From NCBI GenBank assembly GCA_943788725.1, contig CALSRJ010000006.1, forward strand, positions 1 through 64,000: a DNA stretch of 64,000 nt. The letters run 5' to 3'. This stretch comes from an uncultured Flavobacteriales bacterium. Lineage in GTDB: Bacteria > Bacteroidota > Bacteroidia > Flavobacteriales_G > Salibacteraceae. Shown here in pieces: positions 2,953-21,854 of the stretch (the first letter of the stretch is position 1; each line of letters starts with the position of its first letter). The notes beneath the pieces are model-generated. The model did not search any database. It was given only the letters and a program-made list of their open reading frames with translations, and was not told where the DNA came from. A program made the translations under genes and the position numbers.

Positions 2953-2955
2953 AAC

Positions 2956-5900
2956 TTACCGAATTAAAGAGATGCTACCTGTTAATGTTTCCGCCCCTGG
3001 GACGCCAGTATCAATGAAATAAAAGTATGCTCCAACAGGCATGTCCTTGTTTTTATATTTTCCGTCCCAGGGTTGTGAATAACCCTTAGACTCGAACACT
3101 TTAGCGCCTAATCGGTTTACTATGAGGACATTACAATCAAGATAATAACCTAATCCATTGATTTCTAGATAGTCGTTTTGACCATCACCATTCGGAGAAA
3201 ATGCATTATAAACAGTAACCTCATTCAAGACCGAAATACTCACACTATCCTCTTGTTGACATCCATCGATTGAATTAACCATCACCCTGTACGTTATGCT
3301 TTCTGTAGGACTTGCAGTAGGGTTACTTGAGCTAGGGTTGTCAAGGTAATCTTCGGGAGACCAATAATAACTAGATGCTACTGAATCAGTCTCAACAGCT
3401 AGGTCAATAACTGAACCACTAAATATGGTTGTGTCTTGACTAACTGTGATTTTCGGGGCACTGCTCCTTTTAACACTGAAGTCACACGTCACACTATTAC
3501 CACTAGTATCGGACATGGTATACTGAATCGCTGTTATTCCAATATCAAACTTGGCCCCACTCTCTATGCCATTGGTGAGAACTGAATTCACGTTTGAACA
3601 ATTGTCTTCAGCCATTGGAATCTCATAATTAATAATTGAATCACAAGAGACGATGTCCTCCGGACAATATGTAATTATTGGTGAGATTGTGTCTAATATT
3701 TCCACCTCAATTTCAATTGTTCCAATATTTCCATTTACATCAGATGCATATACAGATACATAATTAATCCCAAGATGTGCGCAAGAGAAGTCAGTTGAGC
3801 TCAAATAAATCGAATCAACATCGCAATTATCTGTTGCTGATGCATTAATAAGATTAACACCAAGAGTAAACTCACCAGCTAAATTTAAATACGCCTGATA
3901 ATTCTCTGCAAACACCAATGGCTTAATGGTATCAGCGACTGTAACGCTAACAATACTACTGTCGATATTTCCATTAACATCTGATACCATTAGGTAAATG
4001 TCATTGACCCCAACCAAACCACAATTGAACAGGCTATCACTAAGGAAAATTGAACCAATTGAACAATTGTCATAACTGCCGCTGTCTACTTGGGGTACAT
4101 TTAACATCGCCTGACCGTTCGCATCTAAATACACCGTTGGACTTTGTGAATAAATAACCGGTTTAATCGTATCCAAAACAGTTATAATAATTTGAACTGA
4201 ACTTGAATTCATTGAATAATCAGACACGGTAAAAGTGACGGTATTCTCTCCAACATCATTACATGTAAAAGTTGTGTCACTTAGCGAATATGTCTCAATT
4301 CCACAGTTATCATAAGAGCCAGTATCTGCAACTAATGGACTAATGCTTGCAGAACCATTAGAGTCAAGATAAATTGTGACATTTTGCGCTAAAGCTGCTG
4401 GAGCGCTGGTTTCTAAAACAGTAACTATAGCAATGTTTTGGGACATATTGCCGCTAACATCTGTTACATATAAAATAATCGTATCCAAACCAATTGAATT
4501 ACAATCAAAAGAATAATTACTCAGATACATCGTATCAATCTCACAATTATCACTCGACCCATTATCAATCTGATTAACAGTAATGTTAGCCTCTCCATTC
4601 GTGTCTAAATAGACCGTTAAATTTTGTGTTATTACAACTGGAGGAAGGCTGTCAATTATTACAACCTGAGCATCATTACTTGAACTATTCCCACTAATAT
4701 CAGTCATCGTCAGCGTAACTATATTTATTGATCCTGTATCCGAACAATCAAATATTGAGTCAGATAAAATACTGCTAGCAATTGTGCAATTATCGGTTGA
4801 TGCACTATCCAAGTCTAACCAAGAAATAATCACTTGACCTGAAGAATCCAGATATGCGATAATATTTTGAGTAATAACAGACGGGGAGGTTGTATCTACA
4901 ACTAACAATTGTGCGGTTGCGGTTGAACTATTCCCGCTCACGTCAAAAACAGTAAGCGTAATGGTATTAATTCCACTGTCAGCGCAATTAAAAATGGTAT
5001 CCGATAGGCTTAAACTAGCAACGTCACAATTATCATAAGAACCATTATCAACCTGCGAAGCTTGAGCGATTGCTTGACCATTAGCATCTAAAAAGAGAGT
5101 TAGATTCTGAGCAATTGCTGTAGGGGAAATGGTGTCCAAAACAGTAATTAATGCATTGGCAGATGCCGAATTCCCACTTATGTCAGTAATTGAGAGTGTA
5201 ATGCTATTTGCGCTTACTGTGTCAGAACAATCAAAAATTGAATCTGATAATATCATCGAAGCTATAGCGCAATTGTCTGTTGAGGAAAGGTCAACCTGAC
5301 TTGGCGTTACCGTTGCTCCACCATTTACGTCTAAGAAAATTGTGACATTTTGGGTCATCACAATGGGGGAGTTAGTGTCCATTACTGTAATTTGGGCACT
5401 TTGTGTTGCTGCGTTGCCACTAGCATCAGTAACAGTAACAGTAATTGTATTAACCCCAGTATCCGCACAAACAAAGTTGTAATTAGAAAGAGTTATTGTG
5501 TCAATATCACAATTATCAGTTGAACCGTTATCGACCTGAATAGCCGTAAGATTAGCAGACCCTGAAGCATCTAGATATAGTGTAACGTTCTGAGTTATCA
5601 CGACTGGTGCAATTGGGTCTATTATTGATACGATAAACTGTGCCGAATCTAAATTCCCATTATTATCTAATGCGTAGAGCAAAGTTGGATTAGATCCAAT
5701 ATTTGCACAGTCAAATGAAGTGTTGCTTAGATAGATAGAATCGATAAGACAATTATCCGAAGTTGCAGAATCGGCAATAAATGCAGATAAGGTGGCCTGG
5801 CCAGAACTGTTAAGATAAACATTAACGTTAGAATGAGGAAAAACAGTTGGACTTATAGTGTCAATATAAATTGCAATGGTATCAATACAGCTAGAAATTC

Positions 5901-8900
5901 CGTCAGAAATAGTTACTGTGTAGTTACTAGTCACAACGGGTGAAACCGAGATACTCGGGCTGGTGTTGCTATTTGACCACAAGAAAGAAATATTGGTTAA
6001 TGCATTGTAGCCAACTGTTGCAGAAGTATTGATACAAATCATTGTATCGCCTTGAGCCAACACAGGATTGATGACACTTACATTAACGGTATCTGAGCTA
6101 GTACATCCTCCGTTATCTGTTACAGTTAGAGAATATGGTCCTGTTGCAGTACATACTTTTGTTTGTGTTGTTTCTCCTGTTGACCAATTGTAGCCAACCC
6201 AAACAGCACCGGCATCTACCGTTACTGAATCGGCAAAACAAGTAGCTAAAACGGTATCGTTAGTAAATGTGAAGTTCGGGTCGTTAACCGTTATACTAAT
6301 GGTATCAATACAGCTAGAAATTCCGTCAGAAATAGTTACTGTAAAAGCTGTTGTGGTGTTTGGTGATACGTTGATTGTACTTGTAGTATCTCCAGTTGAC
6401 CAATTATAGTTAATAGCCGATTGGCCAGTAAAGCTGATGATCAATTTACCATTTCCACCATTTGAGCCAGAGCTTGAATATGCGCCATAACCAATGCCTG
6501 TGTTATAAAGAGCATTAGAAGTACTTGGTGGAATGGCCGATGTGTTTGAAGGGCCATTTTGTCCGGTTGTTGTTACACCTGAACTCACAAGAGTAGGATG
6601 CAAGTAACCTGAACCACCGCCACCTGGTCTAGCGTCAGAGAATCCTCCTTCACCACCAAAGTAGCCACCGCCACCGCCACCGCCATCTGGGCTTCCTGAA
6701 TTTTGAGATCCACTGGCATCTCCATTACCGCCTTTAAGTGGACTTCCATCATCTCCATTTGTGCCCGTTCCTGCAGCAGTTGAAGTAGCACCATTGCCAC
6801 CGGTTGTTTCACCTGCGTTTGTTCCACCACCGGCACCACCACCTCCAGAGTAAGCACAAGAACCGCCACCGCCTCCTGCAATTAGCAAGGCTCTTGATTG
6901 ACCAGAAGCGTCAAATGTCATAGATGCTGCGCCAAGGAATAATCCAGTTAATCCTCCTCCAGATGCTCCAGAAGCATCGCCATAAGTGCCGTAGCCACCG
7001 CCTCCATAAGTTGCAGAACCACCACTAGTAAAAAGTCCGACTCCTTGTCCAATTCCTCCTTGACCTACTACAACTTTTAATTGTTGACCAGGTGTTACTG
7101 CAATCGTTCCGGAAGAGAAACCACCGGAACCGCCTGCGTAAGAAGATGAATATCCTCCTTTGCCACCACCAGCGCCCCACGCGAGCACATTAATGGACGT
7201 AACACCAGACGGTACTGTAAATGTTTGGTCAGTGCCTGTGTAGTTAAATGCAATGGTGTCTGAACTAACAAAAATTTGAGAATTGATGGAAATTGAGTCT
7301 CCAATACAAATTGTCGTATCATTAGATCCAGAGTTGGTGTTAATCACACTTACGGTAACTGTATCCCAAGTTTCACACTGACCATTGATTGATACAGTGA
7401 GTGAATACACTCCTGAAGATGTGATAGAAGTTGTTTCTGTGGTGTCTCCGTTCGACCATAAATAATTGTCCCAAGTAGATCCTGCAGATACGTTAACTGT
7501 GTCTGAGCCGCAGCTCAAAATAGTGTCGTTAGTAAAGGTGAAGTTCGGGTCAACAATGGTTACTGTAATACTGTCATAGCATTCGGCAAAGCCATCTGTT
7601 ATGGTAACATAATAGGTGGTCGTGCTAATTGGTGAAACATCAATAGTGTTTGTCGTGTCACCATTAGACCATAAATACTCGTAAGAACCGCCACCACCAA
7701 CGTTTCCTGCGCTAGGCGCTCCATACGCAGTTGTTATACCAAATCGATTTGCTATCGAAGTTTGTACATTTTCTAACTCTACGGGAGCCAGTGTATCATC
7801 AAACATGATGACCTCCATTATATCCACATTAGAAAGTTCGCTCAAATTTCCCGATCCATTTAGCGTGAATCCTCGTGGATCGGTGCCGGCATTGCTGTTA
7901 TACTTTGACTGAACAGTGGCGTTGCTGTAAAAATTCCAATTCGTTTGGTTTGCTTTCCACATAGTATGTATATATGGTACTTGCCAACCAGAACTCGAGG
8001 TTATACCTGGATACACTTTCCAGCCTTCGTAATGGGCAACATTTATACGATTTTGCCAGAATCCATGCAACCAATTTTGGTGATATGAACCAAATACGCG
8101 GGCATTTGAAGATGTTGTAGTTTTCGCTGCGGTAACCAAGGTAAATGGTTGTTGAAATGTATAATTAACAGTATATCGGAGCTGCTGCGAATTGGTAAAA
8201 TGCATGATAGGAGCTCCATAGGCTGAAGTCAGGACCAAAGTTGGTTGTCTGCTATTCGTGGTTTGAACCACATCCCTCGAGCTACCACTTTGGTCATACA
8301 AGGTTCTTACGTAAATGGTACTTCCCCCAGCCCAAGATTCAATTGCAGCCACATTCAATTCACCATTTAAAAACCCGAAATCAGATAATGCATTATCGGA
8401 ACTTCTTCTCAATTGAACTGCATTTCCGTTATAATCAGCGTTAATCAAACGAAGACCAAGAGCAAGTTTAAAACCTGCTTGTGTCTGGAGGGTGTTTCCT
8501 CCGCCAGCTCCAAAACCTATTGTTGCTGAATCTCCAACACAAAAGGTAGTGTCGCCTTGAATAAGGGTAGTGTTAATTAAACCAACAGATACTGAGTCGC
8601 TTACAGTACATCCATATTGGTTGGTTACTGTTAAATGATAAACACCGCCTGTAGTTGTTGTAAATAATTGAGCGCTATCTCCAGTGCTCCAAGCATAGTT
8701 TGACCATCCTGCACCAGCATCTATACTTGCTGTGTCAACACCACAATAGGCAAGTGTATCACTAGAAAAAGAATATACAGGTGCGTTTACAAATACAGTC
8801 ATTGTATCGTAACACGTAGATATACCATCTGTAATGGTCACATAATAATCTGTTGTTTGTGTTGGAGAAACATTTATAGTAGCAGTAGTGTCTCCAGTAG

Positions 8901-9870
8901 ACCACAAAAATTGATAATTCAAAATAGGCGTGTATCTAATCACAACGATTCCTGATCCACCTTCGCCACCTTTATTGTTAGAGTTGAAGTGTGATCCGCC
9001 ACCGCCACCGCCACCGGTGTTTGCGCCTGCGTCTCCGCCTGGTTTATTGGTTTGTTGGCCTGTGTTGCCGCCACCACCGGGTGATCCATTGTTTAAGCCA
9101 GCGCCACCTGTAGTGGTGCCAACAGCGCCACCGCCACCGCCACCAATGCCTCCGTTACCACCAATAGTGCTATAGCCACTGCCACCGCCACCACCAGCAA
9201 AATAATATGTCGTTCCTAAAATATCAGATTGTAATCCAGCGCCACCATTCGCATTGTAAGAGCCCCCATTAGGACCACCACCGCCTTGACTACCAGCACC
9301 ACCGCCACCGCCTGAGCGGTGAGAACCAGCTCCATGACCACCTCTGTTTCCTTGTCCTGCGGTTTCTAACCCAGCTCCAGATCCATTTGGTGCATTGTAT
9401 CCAGCACAACCTCCACCAGAGCCACCATTGCTTCCAGCTGCTCCTGGTGTCGAATTCCAATAACTTGTTCCGCCTGCTCCACCGCCTATGGCAACAAGAA
9501 GTGATCCTATAGAAGAATTACCACCGTTCAAAGCAGGAATGCTGTATTGATGTCCACCTGGTTGGCCAAAAGTACCCGCGGCAGGAGCGCCTGTGCCTCC
9601 TTGTCCAACAGTAATATTATAAGAGCCTGCTGGTAAGATAAACGTAGTGTCAATGAAGCCTCCGGCTCCACCACCACCCCCCATATCCATACCACCGCCA
9701 CCACCACCGCCCACTATGAGCGCACGTACTTGTGCAGTACTCGGGAAAACCAAGGTTCCGTCCGTTAAAAATTTGTTGACCGCTTCTTGGCCAATGGTGT
9801 CGAGTATACCACCAGCAGCAAAACCACCAAGACTCAAGTAGCCAGCAGTAATGGTGTCGCCATTACACAT
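2956..9870 (-). CDS. Giant modular adhesin, C-terminal part, with gliding-type T9SS sorting domain
   Basis: 2304 residues with no signal peptide of its own. Modules in order: a glycine-rich domain (about 40-312); Ig-like/PKD-like units with SNGDTT-type motifs (320-430); an arabinofuranosidase-B-like lectin-fold module containing TLYDQSG (457-720); more Ig-like units (727-850); a second glycine-rich domain opening QTFTVPSGVTSINVLAWGAG (871-1150); Ig-like units; nine tandem ~78-residue repeats (1337-2057); one HYR-like unit (2060-2137); an Ig-like unit; and a gliding motility-associated C-terminal domain containing NAFSPNGDGQNDYLEI (about 2214-2304). The last domain is a type B T9SS signal. The listed ATG at 9870 is probably not a native start: the preceding bases encode the same protein in another frame (see 9871-10078). 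It would be exported by T9SS through the neighbouring PorP/SprF. Confidence 0.85.
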   Translation of the reverse strand: MCNGDTITAGYLSLGGFAAGGILDTIGQEAVNKFLTDGTLVFPSTAQVRALIVGGGGGGGMDMGGGGGAGGFIDTTFILPAGSYNITVGQGGTGAPAAGTFGQPGGHQYSIPALNGGNSSIGSLLVAIGGGAGGTSYWNSTPGAAGSNGGSGGGCAGYNAPNGSGAGLETAGQGNRGGHGAGSHRSGGGGGAGSQGGGGPNGGSYNANGGAGLQSDILGTTYYFAGGGGGSGYSTIGGNGGIGGGGGGAVGTTTGGAGLNNGSPGGGGNTGQQTNKPGGDAGANTGGGGGGGSHFNSNNKGGEGGSGIVVIRYTPILNYQFLWSTGDTTATINVSPTQTTDYYVTITDGISTCYDTMTVFVNAPVYSFSSDTLAYCGVDTASIDAGAGWSNYAWSTGDSAQLFTTTTGGVYHLTVTNQYGCTVSDSVSVGLINTTLIQGDTTFCVGDSATIGFGAGGGNTLQTQAGFKLALGLRLINADYNGNAVQLRRSSDNALSDFGFLNGELNVAAIESWAGGSTIYVRTLYDQSGSSRDVVQTTNSRQPTLVLTSAYGAPIMHFTNSQQLRYTVNYTFQQPFTLVTAAKTTTSSNARVFGSYHQNWLHGFWQNRINVAHYEGWKVYPGITSSSGWQVPYIHTMWKANQTNWNFYSNATVQSKYNSNAGTDPRGFTLNGSGNLSELSNVDIMEVIMFDDTLAPVELENVQTSIANRFGITTAYGAPSAGNVGGGGSYEYLWSNGDTTNTIDVSPISTTTYYVTITDGFAECYDSITVTIVDPNFTFTNDTILSCGSDTVNVSAGSTWDNYLWSNGDTTETTSITSSGVYSLTVSINGQCETWDTVTVSVINTNSGSNDTTICIGDSISINSQIFVSSDTIAFNYTGTDQTFTVPSGVTSINVLAWGAGGGKGGYSSSYAGGSGGFSSGTIAVTPGQQLKVVVGQGGIGQGVGLFTSGGSATYGGGGYGTYGDASGASGGGLTGLFLGAASMTFDASGQSRALLIAGGGGGSCAYSGGGGAGGGTNAGETTGGNGATSTAAGTGTNGDDGSPLKGGNGDASGSQNSGSPDGGGGGGGYFGGEGGFSDARPGGGGSGYLHPTLVSSGVTTTGQNGPSNTSAIPPSTSNALYNTGIGYGAYSSSGSNGGNGKLIISFTGQSAINYNWSTGDTTSTINVSPNTTTAFTVTISDGISSCIDTISITVNDPNFTFTNDTVLATCFADSVTVDAGAVWVGYNWSTGETTQTKVCTATGPYSLTVTDNGGCTSSDTVNVSVINPVLAQGDTMICINTSATVGYNALTNISFLWSNSNTSPSISVSPVVTSNYTVTISDGISSCIDTIAIYIDTISPTVFPHSNVNVYLNSSGQATLSAFIADSATSDNCLIDSIYLSNTSFDCANIGSNPTLLYALDNNGNLDSAQFIVSIIDPIAPVVITQNVTLYLDASGSANLTAIQVDNGSTDNCDIDTITLSNYNFVCADTGVNTITVTVTDASGNAATQSAQITVMDTNSPIVMTQNVTIFLDVNGGATVTPSQVDLSSTDNCAIASMILSDSIFDCSDTVSANSITLSITDISGNSASANALITVLDTISPTAIAQNLTLFLDANGQAIAQASQVDNGSYDNCDVASLSLSDTIFNCADSGINTITLTVFDVSGNSSTATAQLLVVDTTSPSVITQNIIAYLDSSGQVIISWLDLDSASTDNCTIASSILSDSIFDCSDTGSINIVTLTMTDISGNSSSNDAQVVIIDSLPPVVITQNLTVYLDTNGEANITVNQIDNGSSDNCEIDTMYLSNYSFDCNSIGLDTIILYVTDVSGNMSQNIAIVTVLETSAPAALAQNVTIYLDSNGSASISPLVADTGSYDNCGIETYSLSDTTFTCNDVGENTVTFTVSDYSMNSSSVQIIITVLDTIKPVIYSQSPTVYLDANGQAMLNVPQVDSGSYDNCSIGSIFLSDSLFNCGLVGVNDIYLMVSDVNGNIDSSIVSVTVADTIKPLVFAENYQAYLNLAGEFTLGVNLINASATDNCDVDSIYLSSTDFSCAHLGINYVSVYASDVNGNIGTIEIEVEILDTISPIITYCPEDIVSCDSIINYEIPMAEDNCSNVNSVLTNGIESGAKFDIGITAIQYTMSDTSGNSVTCDFSVKRSSAPKITVSQDTTIFSGSVIDLAVETDSVASSYYWSPEDYLDNPSSSNPTASPTESITYRVMVNSIDGCQQEDSVSISVLNEVTVYNAFSPNGDGQNDYLEINGLGYYLDCNVLIVNRLGAKVFESKGYSQPWDGKYKNKDMPVGAYFYFIDTGVPGAETLTGSISLIR
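3660..5860 (-). repeat. Nine tandem ~78-residue cadherin/HYR-like repeats within the adhesin
   Basis: About 235-240 bases per unit. Each unit opens with a strand such as VITQNVTLYLDASGSA, carries a central S(T/Y)DNC motif and a second Cys in F(N/D)CAD or FDC, and ends near VTDxSGN. Starts fall near 5850, 5610, 5370, 5125, 4880, 4640, 4400, 4150 and 3915. A diverged HYR-type unit follows. The two conserved Cys per unit suggest one intra-repeat disulfide, which is an inference. Confidence 0.85.
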
Positions 9871-10078
9871 AGTAAAATCATCTAGTCAGGTTTTGGTAGA
9901 CTAACAAACACCGAATCGGTAACGTCACACGAGCCATCATTTACCACACGATTATACTTTCCAGAATACCTGGCAGTACAAATTTGAGTAGTGTCTAGGT
10001 TGGACCATGAGTAGGTTTGCCAGCCTGCGCCAGCATCAATCAAAATACTGTCTGCTCAGCAGTTTGCGGTAATCGTAT
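9871..10078 (-). pseudogene. Disrupted bridge joining the two adhesin ORFs
   Basis: Read on the minus strand in the third frame, this stretch continues the upstream ORF (LDTITANC, then stop, then ADSILIDAGAGW), passes through a normal Ig-like unit (WSNLDTTQICTARYSGKY) and reaches SLPKPD. With one extra base it then runs as LDDFT directly into MCNGDTITAG of the downstream ORF. Three lesions account for the break: an apparent one-base deletion at 10079-10081 (creates TAG), an in-frame TGA at 10056-10058 where sister units have Gly after Cys, and an apparent one-base deletion at 9882-9884 (creates TAG). Either the gene is decaying or the assembly has errors here. Confidence 0.8.
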
Positions 10079-12616
10079 CTAATTAAATCCAAAACTTGGA
10101 GCTGTTACAATAGCTCTTACAGAGTCAATGTTTGGATTGCTTAGCAAGCATGGAGCGGCAGCGTCCGCCACTTGTCCACCAGCGGTTTGCCAATCGTATT
10201 GAGAAGCTATGCGTCCTTCAATGTATTCTCGTTCTGTGTCTGTAATTACATCATCGAAAATGAAAACCTCCATGATGTCTACATTGGATGTTTCGTTATT
10301 CGCAGCAAAGCCATTCAATTGAAAGCCATTTGGCGGCTGCGCGTTGTTACCATTAATCGTATTTGCAGGCCACTCATTCCCATTATCGAAAAATCGGTGA
10401 GATGTATTTGATGCACTCATTGATGAATGAATCCAAGTATCAGAGCTACTTGCTGCCACCATATTAGTGCCGCTATTCGAAATCCAAGTATTAAAGTGAT
10501 GCCGATTTACTTGATTGCTGTAAAAGGCGAAAAGGTAGTTATTCGCAGCTCCAAAAACTCTACCGCAGCTGTTAGTCGTTAATTTGGCAGCAGTTACAAT
10601 TGACATTGGATAAACAATGTCATTGGTGGTGTATCTAAGGAAAGTTCCCGTTACGAAACGCAAAACTGGCTTTCCATTCTCACCACTCAATATGAGCTGG
10701 GGCTGTTGCGCAGTGTTGGTGTTTAATAAATTACGGCCATTACCGCTTTGATCAAATATTGTGTGCACCCAAAGCGTACTTGCCGCCCCTGCCCATGCGT
10801 TAATGGCCGCTGAGTCTAGCTGGCCCAAAAAGTTGAATCCAAAAGATGCCGTATCATTTGCCGTTGCACTTTTTCTTAGTATTACTGCCTTGCCTTCATA
10901 GTCAGAAACGAGCAATCTTAAACCAAGAGCCAATTGCATGCTGTTATCAACGGCATCTGTCGGTGGGGTATAGGTTACATATTGAGAAGAATAATAATAG
11001 GTTGTGGTGTCGTTTAAGAAAGGCGTAGTAAATTCATTACCATAAAAGATAGGCGTACCTCCAGTATCGGTTTCATACCATACTGTTTGTATCAAGCTAT
11101 CTGTGGTCGCATTAAATGTGAATGTGCCTGCGCAATGCTCAATATCGGCTAATCCTACGGGCATGTTTGGTACACCAAAAACATAGATTTCTTGAGATAA
11201 TGTATCTGCCCAATTTCCATTGGAAATAGTAACCGTATAAGTTGTTGTTGTTGCTGGGCTTACTTGTATAAAAGACGTGGTGTCGCCATTGCTCCAAGCA
11301 TAACTTGAACCTGTTATAACCGCTAAACTTGCTGTAGCTGACACAGGGTTAGTAGTAGGGTATGAAGATATGGTTGAGGCTAGTGCTATTCTGCCTGCAG
11401 AACCTGCGCCTCCTACGCCACCGCAACCATTATTTGCGCCTCCATTTCCGCCAAGGCTAGTAATAGTGCCATTACCGCTGAAAAGACTAATTAATTTTAT
11501 GGACCCACCGGCGCCACCACCACCACCACCCATGCCGCATCCACCACCAGTTCCATTGCCACCGTTTTGGCCGTTACAAGTAATGGTGCCAGCATTTTGA
11601 GTAACCGAAGCACTAAAATATATAATACCACCACCATCTCCGCCATCTCCAGGTTTCTGGCCATCTTCATCACCGCCACCTTCGCCCCCAGCGCCACCCA
11701 TGATCAATAATTCTAAGTTTGCTGTCCCTACTGAAAGGCCTCCTGTGCCCCCATAATGACCACCCGAGTTATTTCCGTTAGTTCCGTTTGATGCATAACT
11801 GCCACCACCGCCTCCACCAGAATCTTGACGTCCGGTGCCGCCACCGCCACCATTACCATTGGCACCATTCCAAGTGACGCTGTTACTTCCGTTAGAGCTC
11901 CCTCCAGCGTAGCCAGTACCATATATTCCTTCACCTTGGGCGCCATTCTTGTTGCGCCAAACTGCATTATGACCAACGCCTCGGTAACCTTTTCCGCTTG
12001 AAGTAATTGTTCCAGCGTTGGTTAACGTGCCGTTTGCTCTAAAGCACAAAACGCCTCCTGTGGAGCCATTCCATGTATTACAAGTAAGTATAGCGCCTGC
12101 AGAAATAGAAACATTAGTATAGTTAGGTACCTTAATGGCCTGATGGATTTGCGTGCTCGAAGCATTAAAAGCATTGGTTCTTGAGGTAGCCAGCGTAAAT
12201 GTATCTCCACTGATAGCTGTGATGATGTTAAATTCATATTTCCCTGTCGTATTAACAGATGTGTTGGCATCTACCATTGTTATGATGATGATTTCATCAC
12301 CAATGCTAAATCCGCTAGACGATGAAACCGTCAAGGTGCTTCCGCCTGCTGCATTGGTCCCTGTTACGCCAGTTCTTAATGCATCGGTGTATGCTGTTCC
12401 TGAGCTGACAGTAAGCGCTCCATCTGATCCATCACCATAATCCGCGCCAACTGTACCCGCATTTAGAGTGGCAGTATCACCTAAGCAAATGGAAGTTGTG
12501 CTTGAGGTTAAAAAGGCCGTTGTGTCTTGACCTTGAGAAGTTTGATGCAAGAATCCAAGTGCAAACATCAAGATTGAAGCCTTTAATAATCTTTGTCTCG
12601 CCTTTAATTTGCCCAT
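10079..12616 (-). CDS. Giant modular adhesin, N-terminal part
   Basis: 845 residues. Residues 1-30 are a signal peptide ending TSQGQ, so this is the true N-terminus of the secreted protein. Residues about 35-60 resemble the start of the SICLGDTATL units seen again in the downstream ORF. A large glycine-rich domain with many GGGGG runs covers about 170-430. Ig-like units with AWSNGDTTS follow near 440, and an arabinofuranosidase-B-like module with HTIFDQSGNGRN lies at about 552-812. The last residues are cut by an early stop. There is no T9SS C-terminal signal on this ORF, so on its own it could not be sorted by T9SS. The missing half is in frame-shifted continuation at 9871-10078 and 2956-9870. 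Antisense proline-rich ORFs across the glycine-rich part are artefacts. Confidence 0.85.
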   Translation of the reverse strand: MGKLKARQRLLKASILMFALGFLHQTSQGQDTTAFLTSSTTSICLGDTATLNAGTVGADYGDGSDGALTVSSGTAYTDALRTGVTGTNAAGGSTLTVSSSSGFSIGDEIIIITMVDANTSVNTTGKYEFNIITAISGDTFTLATSRTNAFNASSTQIHQAIKVPNYTNVSISAGAILTCNTWNGSTGGVLCFRANGTLTNAGTITSSGKGYRGVGHNAVWRNKNGAQGEGIYGTGYAGGSSNGSNSVTWNGANGNGGGGGTGRQDSGGGGGGSYASNGTNGNNSGGHYGGTGGLSVGTANLELLIMGGAGGEGGGDEDGQKPGDGGDGGGIIYFSASVTQNAGTITCNGQNGGNGTGGGCGMGGGGGGAGGSIKLISLFSGNGTITSLGGNGGANNGCGGVGGAGSAGRIALASTISSYPTTNPVSATASLAVITGSSYAWSNGDTTSFIQVSPATTTTYTVTISNGNWADTLSQEIYVFGVPNMPVGLADIEHCAGTFTFNATTDSLIQTVWYETDTGGTPIFYGNEFTTPFLNDTTTYYYSSQYVTYTPPTDAVDNSMQLALGLRLLVSDYEGKAVILRKSATANDTASFGFNFLGQLDSAAINAWAGAASTLWVHTIFDQSGNGRNLLNTNTAQQPQLILSGENGKPVLRFVTGTFLRYTTNDIVYPMSIVTAAKLTTNSCGRVFGAANNYLFAFYSNQVNRHHFNTWISNSGTNMVAASSSDTWIHSSMSASNTSHRFFDNGNEWPANTINGNNAQPPNGFQLNGFAANNETSNVDIMEVFIFDDVITDTEREYIEGRIASQYDWQTAGGQVADAAAPCLLSNPNIDSVRAIVTAPSFGFN

Positions 12617-15241: not shown

Positions 15242-17344
15242 TTGAACACTAGAGACACTCCCATAGAATTCCTCAAAGGCGTCGGTCCTCAGCGGGCTGA
15301 ATTGCTGCGCTCAGAGCTGGGAGTCCGCACCGTAGGTGACCTTGTCCGGCACTACCCCTTTCGCCACATCGATCGGAGTAAGTTTTATCCCATCTCAGAG
15401 GTAGATCCCAATGCAGCCTTGGTACAGATCAAAGGCAAGTTCATGCGTTTAGACAGCATCGGCGCGAAACGCGCCACGCGCATGGTAGGGGCATTTCAAG
15501 ACGGACAAGGAAACATCATGGAAGTGGTCTGGTTCCGCAGCATCACGTGGATCAAGCAGACGATCAAGCCCGATGTGGAGTATGTGCTGTTTGGGAAGCC
15601 CAGCATTTTTAACGGGAAGCTGCAAATGACCCACCCAGAGATCGAACCCGCATCGGAATTTGACAAACCATTGAAAGGTGGGCTCGAAGGAGTTTATCCC
15701 ACCACCGAAAAACTCAAAGCGCGCAAACTAGACAGTCGCGCCATTCGAAAGCTGATGCAAGCCGCCTTACCCATGGCGATGTCTGGCGTACAAGAAACGC
15801 TACCTGCGTACATGCTCAAGCGTCAAAGCCTACTCTCCAACACAGAAGCCTTGCAAGGCATCCACTTTCCAGAAAACACAGAACAATTAAAACGCGCCGA
15901 GCGCACGCTGAAATTTGAGGAGCTCTTCTATGTGCAGATGCGCCTGCTTCGGGTCCGTTCCTTGCGTGAGCAAAACATCAAGGGGTTGGTCTTTGAGGCC
16001 GTGGGCGAACACTTCAATACCTTCTACAAGGAACATCTTCCCTTTCCGCTGACTGGCGCTCAAAAAAGGGTCATCAAAGAAATTCGAAAAGACATCGGAA
16101 GCGGGCAGCAGATGAATCGTCTCCTGCAGGGAGATGTGGGCAGCGGAAAAACGATTGTGGCATTGTTATGTGCCTTGATAGCCATTGACAATGGGTACCA
16201 GGCGACCATCATGGCGCCTACTGAGATCCTGGCGCAGCAGCATTACGAATCGCTCTTCGAGCTGTTGATCAACATGAACCTCAACGTAGCCCTGCTCACT
16301 GGAAGTTCCAAAGCGGCCTACCGAAAGAAATTGCACGCCAGTCTGGAAAGCGGCGAGATCAACCTACTCATCGGCACCCACGCCTTGCTGGAAGATAAAG
16401 TCAAGTTTCATAACCTGGGATTGGTCGTCATTGATGAACAACATCGATTTGGAGTGGCGCAGCGTTCCAAGCTTTGGAAAAAAAATACCCGCCCGCCCCA
16501 TATCCTGGTCATGACCGCGACTCCTATCCCACGCACATTGGCAATGACGGTCTACGGCGACCTCGATGTAAGCGTAATCGATGAAATGCCGCCTGGGAGA
16601 AAGCCCATTAAAACGGTTCATCGTTTTGACAGTGCGCGCCTTCAGGTCTTTGGCTTCATGAAGGAAGAGATCAAGAAAGGTCGTCAGATCTATGTGGTCT
16701 ACCCGCTCATCGAAGAGTCCGAAAAAATGGATTACAAGGACTTGATGGATGGCTATGAAAGCATTTGCCGGGCCTTTCCCCAGCCCGAATACCAAGTGGC
16801 CATTGTCCATGGAAAGATGAAGTCGGAAGACAAGGATTTTGAAATGAAGCGTTTCGCCGACGGACAATGCCAGCTCATGGTAGCAACAACCGTGATCGAG
16901 GTCGGGGTGAACGTGCCAAACGCATCGGTCATGGTCATCGAAAGCGCAGAGCGTTTTGGGCTTTCCCAGTTACACCAATTGCGCGGCCGTGTGGGACGCG
17001 GTGCCGAACAGAGTTTCTGCATTTTGATGACAGGAAACAAGTTGAGCAACGAGGCTCGAACGCGCATGAATACAATGGTGGAAACAAACGATGGATTTCG
17101 CATCTCTGAGGTTGACCTCAAGCTACGTGGCCCGGGTGATATCATGGGCACCCAGCAAAGCGGAGCGCTCGATTTTCACATTGCAGATCTCATCAAGGAC
17201 AGCGAGCTTTTAGAAGCAGCCCGGCAAGAGGCGGAGTACATCTATGACAACGACCCCAAGCTCGAGCACCCTACCTTGGCCATCGTCTTACAACGTCTAA
17301 CATTGATCATGAAGCGCATGCCAAATTGGGCGCGAATTTCCTAG
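15242..17344 (+). CDS. recG: ATP-dependent DNA helicase RecG
   Basis: 700 residues, the family norm. RecG remodels stalled replication forks and branch-migrates Holliday junctions. It shows the N-terminal wedge/OB region (about 1-230), Walker A GDVGSGKT near residue 297, the DEQH box IDEQHRFGVAQR near 397, the motif GHALL-like GTHALLEDKV, TATPIPRTLA (motif III), and QLRGRVGRG (motif VI) near 580. The start is TTG at 15242: the nearby ATG at 15237 reads only two codons in another frame, and the next in-frame Met is about 68 residues in, which would remove part of the wedge domain. Confidence 0.95.
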   Translation: MNTRDTPIEFLKGVGPQRAELLRSELGVRTVGDLVRHYPFRHIDRSKFYPISEVDPNAALVQIKGKFMRLDSIGAKRATRMVGAFQDGQGNIMEVVWFRSITWIKQTIKPDVEYVLFGKPSIFNGKLQMTHPEIEPASEFDKPLKGGLEGVYPTTEKLKARKLDSRAIRKLMQAALPMAMSGVQETLPAYMLKRQSLLSNTEALQGIHFPENTEQLKRAERTLKFEELFYVQMRLLRVRSLREQNIKGLVFEAVGEHFNTFYKEHLPFPLTGAQKRVIKEIRKDIGSGQQMNRLLQGDVGSGKTIVALLCALIAIDNGYQATIMAPTEILAQQHYESLFELLINMNLNVALLTGSSKAAYRKKLHASLESGEINLLIGTHALLEDKVKFHNLGLVVIDEQHRFGVAQRSKLWKKNTRPPHILVMTATPIPRTLAMTVYGDLDVSVIDEMPPGRKPIKTVHRFDSARLQVFGFMKEEIKKGRQIYVVYPLIEESEKMDYKDLMDGYESICRAFPQPEYQVAIVHGKMKSEDKDFEMKRFADGQCQLMVATTVIEVGVNVPNASVMVIESAERFGLSQLHQLRGRVGRGAEQSFCILMTGNKLSNEARTRMNTMVETNDGFRISEVDLKLRGPGDIMGTQQSGALDFHIADLIKDSELLEAARQEAEYIYDNDPKLEHPTLAIVLQRLTLIMKRMPNWARIS

Positions 17345-18154: not shown

Positions 18155-18243
18155 TCCTTCTCTTATTCATCTCTCCTTCCCTTTTTCGGCTCAACCATTC
18201 ATAACACTCTGATAACCAATTATCACAAAGCTCAGTACTTTGC

Positions 18244-18285
18244 ATTGCATGGTAATGTCTTTTACCTATATATTTGTAATGCAAT
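18244..18285 (+). promoter_or_regulatory. Dyad ATTGCAT ... ATGCAAT upstream of copy 1
   Basis: ATTGCAT (18244-18250) and its reverse complement ATGCAAT (18279-18285) flank an A/T-rich spacer containing CCTATATAT. The same arrangement is retained in copy 2. A GTACTTTG motif lies just upstream. It could be an operator pair or a hairpin; no binding protein can be assigned from sequence. Confidence 0.45.
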
Positions 18286-18302
18286 AAAAACGAAACGCTC
18301 GT

Positions 18303-18330
18303 GTAACTTTTTAGAAACATGGGCGTCATA
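18303..18330 (+). promoter_or_regulatory. ECF-sigma-type promoter, copy 1
   Basis: GTAAC at 18303-18307 and CGTCATA from 18324 are separated by exactly 16 bases, a layout typical of ECF (extracytoplasmic function) sigma promoters. The same pair and spacing occur in copy 2. The ATG is 23 bases after the -10-like element. Confidence 0.55.
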
Positions 18331-18352
18331 AGACAAAGAAAACCTAGAAAAC

Positions 18353-18661
18353 ATGAAAAACTTAGCCATTATACTGACACTCGTCTCCGGACTCTACCTC
18401 AATGGCAAGGCCAAAGCAGAGGGAGTCGCAACAGACAGCACCAAACCAGACTCTAGCGGCATGATCACATGTCCATTGACATTTCTTGAAAACGTTTCAC
18501 TTGAAGCTGGAGCAGCTGCAGATGCGCTCCTTTCAAATCCAAGCTATTCGGCTCCGGAGAAACGACAAGAAGAAAACACCAGTAAAGAATTCTTGATGAA
18601 GCTCACCTCTATGAATGCTGCAAAGGCTGCAGAAGAGATCCGCGCTGATCTGGAAGATTAA
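18353..18661 (+). CDS. Small secreted protein of unknown function, copy 1
   Basis: 102 residues. A signal peptide (about 1-22, ending KAKA) precedes a mature part of about 80 residues that is mainly polar and helix-prone, with a conserved core TSKEFLMKLTSMNAAKAAEE near the C-terminus and an acidic tail. It is about 80% identical by eye to the protein at 19212-19520. The central segment differs most: this copy has MITCPLTF with a lone Cys, where the other has MTVGQLNI. I do not recognise the family. Each copy has its own ECF-type promoter, dyad and strong terminator, so the two are separate monocistronic units. The shared upstream sequence points to regulated expression, possibly envelope stress, which is inference. 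Confidence 0.75.
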   Translation: MKNLAIILTLVSGLYLNGKAKAEGVATDSTKPDSSGMITCPLTFLENVSLEAGAAADALLSNPSYSAPEKRQEENTSKEFLMKLTSMNAAKAAEEIRADLED

Positions 18662-18728
18662 ACCTCCTTCCTTTTGGTGAGGAAGCAGACATCGCAATTC
18701 ACCTTCGCATAGGTTCTATATATAATGA

Positions 18729-18756
18729 GTCCCACATCTTGTGGGACTTTTTTTTG
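18729..18756 (+). terminator. Rho-independent terminator after copy 1
   Basis: GTCCCACA/TGTGGGAC-type stem (18729-18747) followed by a run of nine or so T. Confidence 0.85.
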
Positions 18757-18757
18757 T

Positions 18758-19067
18758 CCCTGCAACGAATCTCGAGGAGAATCAATTTTTTCATTGCTCG
18801 TCTCCTGATCACTCGTGCATGCACCCTTGTAAAAGAAAGGCGATCAGACAAAATGAAATTCGCGGAACGTCAATCACGTCGTTTGGAGTAAGGTGGGATC
18901 CTGAAACCGAGGTTACGGATCAAGATGAGACCCCTAGCCCCTGCCCTCCCACACCATTCGCTTTACACTCCAATATTCACATCCTCTTCGAGCCAATATG
19001 CTGAATATATCACCGCATTCAAATACATACCCCCACCCGCATTCTGAAATACACCGCCATAACTACC
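18758..19067. other. Spacer between the two cassette copies
   Basis: About 310 bases between the copy 1 terminator and the homologous upstream region of copy 2. No convincing coding frame, RNA or repeat was found. The overlapping frames that read through it lack signals. Confidence 0.4.
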
Positions 19068-19100
19068 TGACAACCAGTTATCACAAAGATTAGTACTTTG

Positions 19101-19144
19101 TATTGCATAGTATTGTCTTAAACATATATACTTGTAATGCAATA
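19101..19144 (+). promoter_or_regulatory. Dyad TATTGCAT ... ATGCAATA upstream of copy 2
   Basis: Perfect 8-base inverted repeat (19101-19108 and 19137-19144) with a 28-base spacer, matching the position of the dyad in copy 1. Confidence 0.45.
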
Positions 19145-19160
19145 AAACTAAAACACCCTT

Positions 19161-19188
19161 GTAACTTTTTAAAACCAAGGGCGTCATA
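19161..19188 (+). promoter_or_regulatory. ECF-sigma-type promoter, copy 2
   Basis: GTAAC at 19161-19165, 16-base spacer, CGTCATAA from 19182. Identical elements and spacing to copy 1. Confidence 0.55.
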
Positions 19189-19211
19189 AGACCAAAGAAA
19201 ACGTAGAAATT

Positions 19212-19520
19212 ATGAAATACTTAGCCATTATTCTCACACTCGTTTCCGGACTCTACTTCAATGGCCAAGCCAATGCAGAAGGAGTCAAAACGGACACCAC
19301 CAATCCAGACTCAAGCGGCATGACCGTGGGTCAACTCAACATTCTCGAGAACGTTTCAATAGAAGCAGGAGAAGCAGCAGATGCCCTCCTATCGAATCCA
19401 AACTATTCAGCTCCGGAGAAACTACAAGAGGAAAAGACCAGCAAAGAATTCTTGATGAAGCTCACTTCCATGAACGCTGCCAAAGCAGCCGAGGAAATTC
19501 GAGTGGACCTAGAAGAATAA
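19212..19520 (+). CDS. Small secreted protein of unknown function, copy 2
   Basis: 102 residues, paralogue of the protein at 18353-18661 and the same length. The signal peptide ends NANA before EGVKTD. The C-terminal helix-prone core (SKEFLMKLTSMNAAKAAEEI) is identical, while the middle (residues about 38-44) has diverged and lacks the Cys of copy 1. The strongest conservation is in the signal peptide and C-terminal third, implying both copies are maintained as proteins. No known domain was recognised. It has its own promoter and terminator. A role as a small periplasmic or surface protein is all the sequence supports. Confidence 0.75.
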   Translation: MKYLAIILTLVSGLYFNGQANAEGVKTDTTNPDSSGMTVGQLNILENVSIEAGEAADALLSNPNYSAPEKLQEEKTSKEFLMKLTSMNAAKAAEEIRVDLEE

Positions 19521-19591
19521 ACTTCTTGCGCCATTGGAAGGCAAAGGATCTAGATACAATTCACCTTAGCTAAGGTTCTATATATGTATAA

Positions 19592-19619
19592 GTCCCACTC
19601 TTGTGGGACTTTTTTTTTG
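19592..19619 (+). terminator. Rho-independent terminator after copy 2
   Basis: Stem GTCCCAC (19592-19598), loop TCTT, GTGGGAC (19603-19609), then T8. Upstream ACCTTAGCTAAGGT forms a second small palindrome. Confidence 0.85.
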
Positions 19620-20204: not shown

Positions 20205-21470
20205 TCAGCTTCCGCTTGGCGGGCCAGAAGCCGCGGGCTGACTTAAGAGGTAAAGCAATACTTGGGTCTCTGCATTGCGAATGTCTGATTGCATCTTCGA
20301 GAGCTGAGAAATCACAGAACTCAACGGAATGTGGTAAAAATGGTATGTAACCCAATCCATTTCATTCCCTCTGAACTCATACATCATGTTGAAATCAAAA
20401 GGTAAAATAGCCTCCATCTCAGCCCTGATCTCTGGGTCATACGCTTGAAGCATTTCCCCTTGAAATTCCTCTAGCTCGCCTAACAATGTATTCGCACTCC
20501 ATTCTTCTTGGTCTCCAAATAGGATGTGCGTGGGGATGTCGAAGTTATCTTGCTTCGTCAAGGAATAGGCTTTGACTGCCCTGGCTTCGTCCAGAGAGAT
20601 ACCTTCTGTTTCTGCAATAAGGTGAAGTCTTAGACCCTCAACCTTATTGATAGCTGCGCTAACGGCACTTTTTACTGCTTCACTTTTTGGTGATTCTTCA
20701 AGTTTTGCATATAGCGCTGCATTGTTCGCAGCCCGAGTGGCGGAAGCATCCAATTCAGAGCCAACCAAGGAAAGTCCTCTGTTAAAATTTTCACTTCTAT
20801 TGAAACTCATCATTCCAAATACCAGGATCAGACACGTCATTGCGACCAGTCCGCTTGAGAGGGTAATTGATTTGTTTGCTGAAGTTTTGTACTTCTTAAT
20901 GAAGTAAATCGGTACATAAGCCAAAGCCAGCGCAGCAATGCCGCCGAGTAGCATTACCGATGCTCCAGGCCAGTGCATGATCTTGAACAGTACTCCAACG
21001 GTGGTCAGGGTCATTCCCACGAAGCCGGAGATGTGCAACAAGTACTCGTCACTTGGCGATTCTTTTAGCTTATGCCAAAGCAACATGGGTAAATAGATGA
21101 GCGCAAGCACACCCGCACCGAGCACTAGCATTACAGCCGCGCCGGGAAAATGAAGAAGTTTAAAGATCGTCCCCGCCAAGAGAAGAAAAGTGGAAGTCAG
21201 CCCGAAAGAAAATGCTACTTTTTTCATGGTTACATTCATTTCGGTTAATAATTCAAAGGTTTGTTGTTGGACCTGCTTTAAGCCCCCAGGTCCGAAGAGC
21301 TTGATTGTTTTGGCGAAGGCCTCTTCAAAAGAGCTGCCACCGTCCATTAAATTTTCTATAGAGGTACACACGTGATCCAAGAGGTCGTCGTGCAAATCGT
21401 CAGATGCGACACCGTGTTGCCGTATATAGGCGCTGACGAGCTCGATCTGTGGTTCGTTCAATTCAGCCAT
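20205..21470 (-). CDS. PadR-associated membrane protein with HAAS-like N-terminus and GldL-like membrane hairpins
   Basis: 421 residues. Residues about 1-70 resemble the HAAS helical domain that often accompanies PadR regulators (DLHDDLLDHVCTSIE...FEEAFAKTI). Two paired membrane segments follow, each with a GldL-like motif: FKLLHFPGAAVML (about 103-115) and FKIMHWPGASVML (about 162-174). A further membrane segment (SLSSGLVAMTCLILVFGMM-like) precedes a large soluble C-terminal domain of about 200 residues, probably periplasmic. It overlaps the PadR gene by 8 bases, so the two are translationally coupled. A sensor or effector controlled by PadR is likely. Direct involvement in gliding is not shown. 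Confidence 0.65.
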   Translation of the reverse strand: MAELNEPQIELVSAYIRQHGVASDDLHDDLLDHVCTSIENLMDGGSSFEEAFAKTIKLFGPGGLKQVQQQTFELLTEMNVTMKKVAFSFGLTSTFLLLAGTIFKLLHFPGAAVMLVLGAGVLALIYLPMLLWHKLKESPSDEYLLHISGFVGMTLTTVGVLFKIMHWPGASVMLLGGIAALALAYVPIYFIKKYKTSANKSITLSSGLVAMTCLILVFGMMSFNRSENFNRGLSLVGSELDASATRAANNAALYAKLEESPKSEAVKSAVSAAINKVEGLRLHLIAETEGISLDEARAVKAYSLTKQDNFDIPTHILFGDQEEWSANTLLGELEEFQGEMLQAYDPEIRAEMEAILPFDFNMMYEFRGNEMDWVTYHFYHIPLSSVISQLSKMQSDIRNAETQVLLYLLSQPAASGPPSGS

Positions 21471-21813
21471 GGTAACTTGGTTTTAGTGTGAATGTGTCTA
21501 GCAGTCGGTTCATGGTACTCGAAAACTCTCGAAACTCTTGCACTAAATTGCCCGACGTCTCTGCGCCGTTTTTGGTCAGGCTGTAGTACTTGCGCACGCG
21601 CTTTCCAATGTTCACCTTCTCAGTGGTGAGTAATCCATCCGCCTCTAAACGATGTAAGAGTGGGTACAATGCTCCTTCGGTCAATTGGATCTTTCCGTCC
21701 GTTGCCTCCTTCACGTGTTGCGTGATTTCGTAACCGTACATCCTCTTCTCCTTTGAGAGAAGGTTTAGCACGATCGTTTTGAGCGTTCCTTTAATGAGTT
21801 CATTCGAATACAT
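21463..21813 (-). CDS. PadR family transcriptional regulator
   Basis: 116 residues from the ATG at 21813 (MYSNELIKGTLKTIVLNLLS). An upstream in-frame ATG at 21828 would add five residues but lies across a TATATTTG promoter box, so the shorter form is preferred. The winged-helix signature is clear: MYGYEITQHV, the beta-wing LTEGALYPLLHRLEADGLL, then RVRKYYSLTKNG. PadR proteins are small repressors, often autoregulated. This one forms a two-gene operon with the membrane protein at 20205 through an ATGGCTGA overlap. A 19-base palindrome upstream (21855-21873) is a candidate operator. Confidence 0.92.
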   Translation of the reverse strand: MYSNELIKGTLKTIVLNLLSKEKRMYGYEITQHVKEATDGKIQLTEGALYPLLHRLEADGLLTTEKVNIGKRVRKYYSLTKNGAETSGNLVQEFREFSSTMNRLLDTFTLKPSYHG

Positions 21814-21817
21814 AAGG

Positions 21818-21825
21818 CAAATATA
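21818..21825 (-). promoter_or_regulatory. -7 box of the PadR operon
   Basis: TATATTTG on the minus strand, ending 4 bases before the ATG at 21813. Its position argues against the ATG at 21828 and for a leaderless or very short leader. Confidence 0.6.
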
Positions 21826-21854
21826 CATTGGAATCTTATGTATTAAAGAATTAT

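What the first reader, a model, noticed from the sequence alone, without database searches (positions are those of the whole stretch)
18210..19619. Duplicated expression cassette for an unknown small secreted protein
Two copies keep not only the coding sequence but about 140 upstream bases, the promoter and the terminator. The proteins differ mainly in a short central stretch, where one carries a Cys. Conservation of control sequence plus local divergence suggests selected dosage or specialisation.
Basis: seen in the sequence. Interest (0 to 1): 0.6.

Follow-up and report, generated by a model that had tools for sequence, protein, structure and literature searches.

The report
Twin stress-promoter genes, unknown secreted protein
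Two neighbouring copies of a gene for a tiny unknown exported protein, found in only three related bacteria, appear to be wired to two separate cell-envelope stress switches at once, which makes the protein a good candidate for a new kind of stress-response part.

Summary
Two cassettes (18200-18756 and 19058-19617) share about 150 upstream bases (82%), the coding sequence (81%) and a 3' element plus terminator (87%); sequence beyond both edges is unrelated. The 102-aa acidic, apparently exported proteins (80% identical) have no significant family or PDB match. Homologues occur in 3 of 42 genomes of the order, all in one genus (3 of 13) and within about 1 kb of recG. A sister species has both copies, each closest to its own counterpart, so the duplication predates that split; both copies are under purifying selection (orthologue dN/dS 0.14 and 0.08).

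The main new result is upstream. Two promoters are stacked: (P1) a sigma-A-type promoter overlapped by a palindrome that, with its -7 element, marks the PadR-PspC membrane-stress operon in 18 of 23 family matches (control 0); and (P2) TGTAAC-N16-CGTC, an ECF-sigma-type promoter whose longer form marks one ECF gene and its linked outer-membrane barrel gene in 17 of 24 genus matches (control 5). All 5 cassettes carry both, including one whose protein is only 32% identical. Most likely this is an envelope-stress effector fed by two circuits, duplicated for dose and partial specialisation. Its biochemical role is inferred, not shown.

The parts
18200..18756 (+). Cassette a: control region, gene and terminator
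   Evidence: Direct repeat families D1, D2, D4, D5; edges from identity drop
18234..18254 (+). PadR-type operator, copy a (AGTACTTTGCATTGCATGGTA, imperfect palindrome)
   Evidence: Near-identical motif precedes the PadR-PspC operon in this genome and in 18 of 23 matches across the family
18269..18276 (+). -7 element TATATTTG of sigma-A-type promoter P1, copy a
   Evidence: Matches TAnnTTTG of Flavobacterium (PMC9723704, passages); 14 nt from operator as in this genome's PadR-PspC promoter
18302..18327 (+). ECF-sigma-type promoter P2, copy a (TGTAAC-N16-CGTC)
18353..18661 (+). Gene a: 102-aa acidic, apparently exported protein with one Cys (C40)
   Evidence: no significant family
18695..18756 (+). 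Conserved 3' element (CAATTCACCTTCGCATAGGTTCTATATAT) and intrinsic terminator, copy a
19058..19617 (+). Cassette b: control region, gene and terminator
19092..19112 (+). PadR-type operator, copy b (AGTACTTTGTATTGCATAGTA)
19127..19134 (+). -7 element of P1, copy b, variant form TATACTTG
   Evidence: Sequence; the sister species' copy b has TATATTTG
19160..19185 (+). ECF-sigma-type promoter P2, copy b
19212..19520 (+). Gene b: 102-aa acidic, apparently exported protein without Cys
19557..19617 (+). Conserved 3' element and intrinsic terminator, copy b
15242..17344 (+). recG (named by eye): syntenic anchor within about 1 kb of the gene in the three genomes that have it (one gene between in G000 and G014, none in G013)
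21463..21828 (-). A second PadR-family regulator, upstream of a GldL/GldM-like protein (20205-21470); not the favoured binder, its own promoter lacks the operator
   Evidence: Pfam PadR 1.5e-21; upstream DNA read

Best explanation
Each cassette is a complete transcription unit for a small (80-aa mature, pI about 4.3) protein exported by a Sec signal peptide and probably periplasmic or surface-bound. Two promoters lie in series in front of it. P1 is a sigma-A promoter; a PadR-family repressor, the one encoded with the PspC membrane-stress protein, sits on a palindrome overlapping its -33 side and is released on membrane stress. P2, about 25 bp downstream, is read by an ECF sigma factor that, by this motif, mostly drives only its own gene and a linked outer-membrane barrel gene. 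The protein is thus made when either the inner-membrane (PadR-PspC) or the envelope (ECF) circuit fires. The unit duplicated before two sister species split, and both copies were kept for dose, with early divergence of the segment after the signal peptide. Shown: the anatomy, the conservation, the small sets of genes sharing each motif, and the purifying selection. Inferred: binding by this PadR and this ECF, export, the stress signal, and the action of the protein (most likely an acidic helical effector that protects or tunes the envelope).
For: (1) Operator plus -7 element searched in 35 family genomes: 23 matches in 20 genomes, 0 in the reversed control. 18 precede PadR-PspC operons in 10 genera, 4 precede cassettes, 1 is elsewhere. 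The fifth cassette (b here) is missed only because its -7 reads TATACTTG. (2) Same geometry: 14 nt from operator to -7 in the cassettes and in this genome's PadR-PspC promoter; 46 and 47 of 57 bases identical. (3) TGTAACTT-N14-CGTC in 13 genus genomes: 24 matches in 9 genomes against 5 in the control. 9 precede the ECF gene, 8 its linked barrel gene, 5 cassettes, 2 other genes. (4) The G013 homologue, 32% identical in protein, keeps both elements in order and the place beside recG. (5) dN/dS 0.14 (orthologues a) and 0.08 (orthologues b). (6) In 7 of the 18 PadR-PspC operons the same promoter first drives another small protein, exported by eye; 2 of these 7 were tested and both match DUF4252.
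Against: No binding or expression data. The five cassettes are only about two independent lineages (G000/G014 and G013). The short form TGTAAC-N16-CGTC is not over-represented in this genome (7 matches vs 11 in the control), and the combined P1-P2 pattern across 35 genomes gave 6 matches (4 of them cassettes) against 17 in the reversed control: the case rests on the longer motifs and on what lies behind them. 4 of 13 genus genomes have no match to the longer ECF motif. At lower stringency the operator alone also stands before other genes (20 places, 4 control matches; 7 of the 20 neither PadR-PspC nor cassette). This genome's copy of the linked ECF gene has an in-frame TAG between regions 2 and 4 (the sister species' gene is whole), so P2 may be served by another ECF here, or the TAG is an assembly error. 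Copy b's -7 element is a variant here. The structure models are poor (pLDDT 57 full-length, 70 mature) and no fold matched.
Confidence: 0.6

Rival explanations
1. Only one of the two promoters is functional: the ECF-like site is a by-product of conserved leader sequence and the gene is simply a PadR-PspC regulon member.
For: The short ECF pattern alone is not enriched in this genome, the combined pattern is no rarer in the control, and the linked ECF gene here has an in-frame stop.
Against: The longer pattern in 13 genomes gives 24 vs 5 control matches, 17 of them before the ECF gene or its barrel gene, and it is kept before a 32%-identical homologue.
Confidence: 0.16
2. The second PadR regulator, encoded about 2 kb away in the window (21463-21828), is the cognate repressor.
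For: It is nearby and lies beside the same locus in relatives.
Against: Its own promoter does not carry the operator, whereas 18 of the 23 family matches are PadR-PspC promoters; the nearby PadR gene is also present in genomes without cassettes, e.g. G011, G012 and G018.
Confidence: 0.12
3. The duplication is a passing tandem amplification with no selected role; similarity of control DNA is just recency.
For: Tandem duplicates are common; one copy's -7 element departs from the consensus here.
Against: Both copies are present and orthologous in a sister species and both are under purifying selection; synonymous divergence between the copies (dS 0.79) exceeds that between the species (0.35 and 0.36), so it is not recent.
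Confidence: 0.1
4. The protein is a secreted inhibitor or antagonist (for competition or defence) that merely uses stress promoters.
For: Small, apparently secreted, lineage-restricted and locally fast-diverging.
Against: No significant match to Pfam, NCBIfam, PADLOC or PHROG models; apart from recG no shared neighbour was seen between G000 and G013 (by eye); acidic, not cationic.
Confidence: 0.06

Closest known systems
PadR-HAAS / PspC membrane-stress dyad (Pfam PF03551 + PF04024; PMC11237479, start of abstract and passages seen)
   Same: The cassettes' P1 has the same operator and geometry as the promoter of this kind of operon in the same genome and family.
   Different: The cassettes are unlinked to the operon and encode a protein of another family; apart from them only 1 of 23 family matches was not a PadR-PspC operon. 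The PspC protein here matches HAAS only below the Pfam cut-off (15.4 vs 27 bits).
ECF-sigma promoters of Flavobacteriia (motif SM6 with a CGT box, PMC9723704, passages seen)
   Same: CGTC box with an ECF-type TGTAAC upstream; the same motif stands before an ECF gene in the genus.
   Different: Here it is stacked behind a sigma-A-type promoter with a PadR-type operator, before a lineage-specific gene.
DUF4252 small exported proteins (PF14060)
   Same: In 7 other family genomes a small protein, exported by eye (DUF4252 in the 2 tested), is the first gene behind the same operator-promoter.
   Different: No profile match of the cassette proteins to DUF4252; predicted all-helical.
CpxP/Spy-type periplasmic stress proteins (recalled)
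   Same: Small, exported, helical, stress-regulated: works-like analogy only.
   Different: No Pfam match at all; the resemblance is recalled, and no fold match was found.

Membership tests
PadR-PspC regulon (as target gene) | Operator palindrome plus -7 element in fixed spacing | tested here: met
   4 of 5 cassettes match the full pattern exactly; the fifth differs in the -7 only
PadR-PspC regulon (as target gene) | Binding and repression by the PadR protein | not testable with these tools
   Needs gel shift or reporter work
ECF-sigma regulon | TGTAAC-N16-CGTC shortly before the start codon, shared with the ECF gene's own promoter | tested here: met
   5 of 5 cassettes, 21-26 nt between CGTC and ATG; also 9 ECF genes and 8 linked barrel genes in the genus
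ECF-sigma regulon | An intact cognate ECF factor in the same genome | tested here: inconclusive
   In-frame TAG in this genome's copy; whole in G014; another ECF gene with a TGTAAC-N16-CGTC promoter is intact here
DUF4252 (PF14060) | Profile match | tested here: not met
   0 Pfam families at E <= 1 for copies a and b and the G013 protein; the G014 copies were not scanned against Pfam
Spy/CpxP (LTXXQ) family | Profile match to its Pfam model | tested here: not met
   0 Pfam families at E <= 1
Secreted (Sec) protein | N-terminal signal peptide: Lys, hydrophobic helix, A-x-A site | tested here: inconclusive
   Read by eye: MK, LAIILTLVSGLY, AKA|EG or ANA|EG; A20, A22, E23, G24 invariant in 5 of 5. 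No signal-peptide program available
Anti-phage defence component | Profile match to a known component | tested here: not met
   PADLOC: 0 families for 5 of 5 members

The most novel reading that the evidence does not exclude
The cassettes encode a new family of secreted stress effectors that has taken over, in this lineage, the place that DUF4252 holds in other genera as the exported output of the PadR-PspC circuit. It gathered a stacked PadR plus ECF promoter, so that one small protein integrates inner-membrane and envelope stress, and its two copies are tuned to different partners through the segment after the signal peptide.
Probability: 0.22. Interest if true: 0.65.

Novelty: new variant of a known kind. 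Interest (0 to 1): 0.46.

Why it matters
It gives a sequence-level candidate operator for the PadR-PspC membrane-stress operon across 10 genera of one family, and names a target outside that operon. The circuit was proposed from gene neighbourhoods (PMC11237479, passages), and paper searches showed no operator for the flavobacterial form (open-licence papers only, listings seen). It also turns an orphan protein into a testable stress effector: its two predicted promoters can be switched separately.

Tried and rejected
Family look-ups gave nothing significant: Pfam 0 families at E <= 1 for copies a, b and the G013 protein; NCBIfam best E 0.061 (PtrA N-terminal, 1 of 5 members); PADLOC none; PHROGs best E 0.041 (phrog_27479, 2 of 5 members); PDB sequences best E 0.59. 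Phage collection: no match to copy b. Rfam at a permissive threshold gave three sub-threshold matches in the terminator regions (21.5-24.5 bits against gathering scores 47-50), rejected. Structure: full-length model pLDDT 57, pTM 0.23; mature-part model pLDDT 70, pTM 0.33, two helices; Foldseek against PDB gave 0 matches at E <= 10. Seven weak protein matches (E 0.04 to 0.4) in other genomes were dropped as chance; the alignment search returned none of them at E <= 0.01.

A relaxed operator search in the genus (26 rows, 4 control matches) gave 20 distinct places: 8 before PadR-PspC, 5 before cassettes, 5 before an exported lipoprotein gene that looks like a polysaccharide-export protein (by eye, not tested; sites of the form TACTTTGnATTnCAAAGTA), and 2 others. 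So at low stringency the operator family is wider than PadR-PspC; with the -7 element at fixed spacing it is nearly exclusive.

The combined P1-P2 pattern was tried as a single test and fails as one: 6 matches against 17 in the reversed control.

A mobile-element or phage origin was considered and dropped: no phage match for the protein and no transposase seen by eye among the ORFs listed around it. A regulatory RNA was considered for the conserved 3' element (29 bases, both copies in two species); it is absent after the G013 gene (by eye), and a structured 3' end plus terminator explains it well enough.

Paper searches: listings. No paper in the held library held all of PadR and DUF4252 (83), or PspC domain, PadR family and Flavobacter (84), or ECF sigma, TGTAAC and CGTC (61), or ECF sigma, Bacteroidetes and TGTAAC (45). 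This covers open-licence PMC papers only. Of two papers (PMC11237479, PMC9723704) I saw the start of the abstract and passages; of all others only the listing.

Full report
What is there. The window is bases 1-64000 of contig C6 of a 2.93-Mb, 7-contig genome. The two named records found with this gene are Flavobacteriales MAGs (JABMOM010000009.1 and JABJJW010000017.1). Between recG plus a membrane-protein gene and a His-rich exported-protein gene (names by eye) lie two tandem copies of one expression unit, 18200-18756 and 19058-19617. Identity is 82% over the 154 columns before the start codon, 81% in the CDS, 51% between stop and the 3' element, and 87% over the 3' element and terminator; it drops to 46% and 48%, i.e. 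unrelated, beyond both edges.

The protein. Each copy encodes 102 aa: an apparent signal peptide ending A-x-A before Glu23 (by eye), then an 80-aa acidic part (pI 4.3, 15-16 acidic vs 7 basic residues). The copies differ at 20 positions; 6 of these are in residues 38-44 and 9 in 24-45 (Fisher p 0.012 for 24-45 against the rest). Copy a has a single Cys at 40, also in the sister species' copy a; copy b has none. The G013 protein has one Cys too, in the same segment but not aligned with it. The predicted structure is two helices (mature residues 20-39 and 46-79) at low to middling confidence, with no fold match.

Spread and age. Homologues: 3 of 35 family genomes with one protein (leaving out seven hits of E 0.04-0.4), 3 of 42 genomes of the order with the alignment, and 2 loci in the genome-contig scan (records near the window's own genome may be left out there). 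All three genomes are of one genus (3 of 13 there). In all three the gene lies within about 1 kb of recG: directly beside it in G013, one gene away in G000 and G014. G014 has both copies: its copy a is 90% identical to ours and its copy b 94%, so the duplication precedes the species split. G013 has one copy, 32% identical to ours.

Selection. Nei-Gojobori counts: paralogues dS 0.79, dN 0.108; orthologues a dS 0.35, dN 0.048; orthologues b dS 0.36, dN 0.030. Both copies are therefore maintained as proteins. In residues 24-45 the paralogue ratio is 0.69 and the orthologue ratios 0.16 and 0.14: change was concentrated there after duplication and then slowed. The formal contrast is only p 0.08, so specialisation is suggested, not shown.

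Promoter P1 and its operator. Upstream of each gene stands AGTACTTTG(C/T)ATTGCAT(G/A)GTA. A pattern made from these two copies finds no third place in the window at up to 3 mismatches (0.07 expected by chance). In the whole genome (control 1 match) the only other match within one mismatch stands 39 bases before the start codon of a PadR regulator followed by a PspC protein (PadR 4.8e-18, PspC 3.2e-23; sequence). The spacing from operator to the -7 element TATATTTG is 14 nt in this PadR-PspC promoter and in the cassettes, and a similar box follows (TGTATAGCAATAA there, TGTAATGCAATAA in four cassettes; not kept in G013). Over 57 bases the PadR-PspC promoter matches cassettes a and b at 46 and 47 positions. 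TAnnTTTG is the sigma-A -7 consensus in Flavobacterium (PMC9723704, passages); the operator overlaps the -33 side, so repression by occlusion is the natural reading (inference). Of 13 genus genomes 11 have this PadR at E <= 1e-25; all 11 upstream regions carry TACTATG and 10 of 11 carry TATATTTG. Across 35 family genomes the pattern operator plus -7 gives 23 matches in 20 genomes and 0 in the reversed control: 18 before PadR-PspC operons, in 10 genera, 4 before cassettes, 1 elsewhere. Cassette b of this genome escapes that pattern only because its -7 reads TATACTTG. In 7 of the 18 operons another small protein, exported by eye, comes first; the 2 tested are DUF4252. PadR paired with HAAS/PspC proteins has been proposed as a membrane-stress switch (PMC11237479, start of abstract and passages); the PspC protein here scores for HAAS only below the Pfam cut-off.

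Promoter P2. Between P1 and the start codon stands TGTAACTTTTTARAAMCAWGGGCGTC in the four closest cassettes and TGTAACTTTTTTCAAACTTGACCGTC in G013, 21-26 nt before ATG. TGTAAC-N16-CGTC has the form of ECF-sigma promoters (general form recalled; a CGT -10 box in Flavobacterium: PMC9723704, passages). In this genome it has 7 matches against 11 for the reversed control, so number alone says nothing; place does. Two are divergent before an ECF gene and a DUF6249 gene, one before a second ECF gene, one before an outer-membrane barrel gene linked to it (OMP_b-brl_2, 2.7e-12), two before the cassettes, and one in an intergenic stretch without a clear gene. The longer TGTAACTT-N14-CGTC in 13 genus genomes gives 24 matches in 9 genomes against 5 in the control: 9 before that second ECF gene, 8 before its barrel gene, 5 before cassettes and 2 others in G015, one of them another small exported protein and one an ABC-transporter-like gene by eye. 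The combined P1-P2 pattern occurs at 6 places in 5 of 35 family genomes, 4 of them cassettes, but the reversed control of that loose pattern gave 17 matches; the combined form therefore adds nothing beyond the two separate tests.

Reading. The simplest account is a lineage-specific exported protein recruited to two small envelope-stress regulons whose other members, by these motifs, are mainly the regulators' own genes and one barrel gene. Duplication raised dose, and the post-signal segment diverged. How the protein works is open; an acidic, helical, exported protein induced by both circuits fits a role in protecting the envelope or in feedback on one of the sensors. I put about 0.6 on the dual-control model and much less on any exact biochemical role.

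Weak points. No expression data; three species only, about two independent lineages; MAG-based relatives; an in-frame TAG in this genome's copy of the linked ECF gene while the sister species' gene is whole; 4 of 13 genus genomes without the longer ECF motif; a wider, lower-stringency family of operator-like sites before a lipoprotein gene, which means PadR-like binding may extend beyond the PadR-PspC operon.

Noticed in passing
L007 (G000:C4), 1216-1218 on the minus strand: The gene of the ECF sigma factor linked to the barrel gene has an in-frame TAG between regions 2 and 4 in this genome; the sister species' copy is whole. Broken gene or assembly error.
   Followed up: partly
window 20205-21828 (-): A second PadR regulator is followed by a protein that joins a GldL_N-like part to a GldM_1st-like part (Pfam GldM_1st 2e-18, GldL_N 4.8e-9): gliding/T9SS-type domains next to a PadR, seen beside the same locus in several relatives.
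   Followed up: no
L013, L065, L067, L068, L069, L071: A sister palindrome TACTTTGnATTnCAAAGTA (one copy varies at an end) begins about 30 bases before an exported lipoprotein gene that looks by eye like a polysaccharide-export protein, in 6 of 13 genus genomes.
   Followed up: partly
L105, L107, L118, L119, L121, L122, L123: In 7 family genomes the operator-promoter first drives a small protein, exported by eye (DUF4252 in the 2 tested), and then PadR-PspC.
   Followed up: partly
window 18695-18723 and 19557-19585: A 29-base 3' element with a small hairpin, kept in both copies and in the sister species, precedes the terminator; role unknown.
   Followed up: partly
window 1966-12616 (-): A very large repetitive surface-type protein (2304 aa), an 845-aa neighbour and a PorP/SprF-like gene (by eye) in DNA of lower G+C (36-46%) than most of the window.
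   Followed up: no
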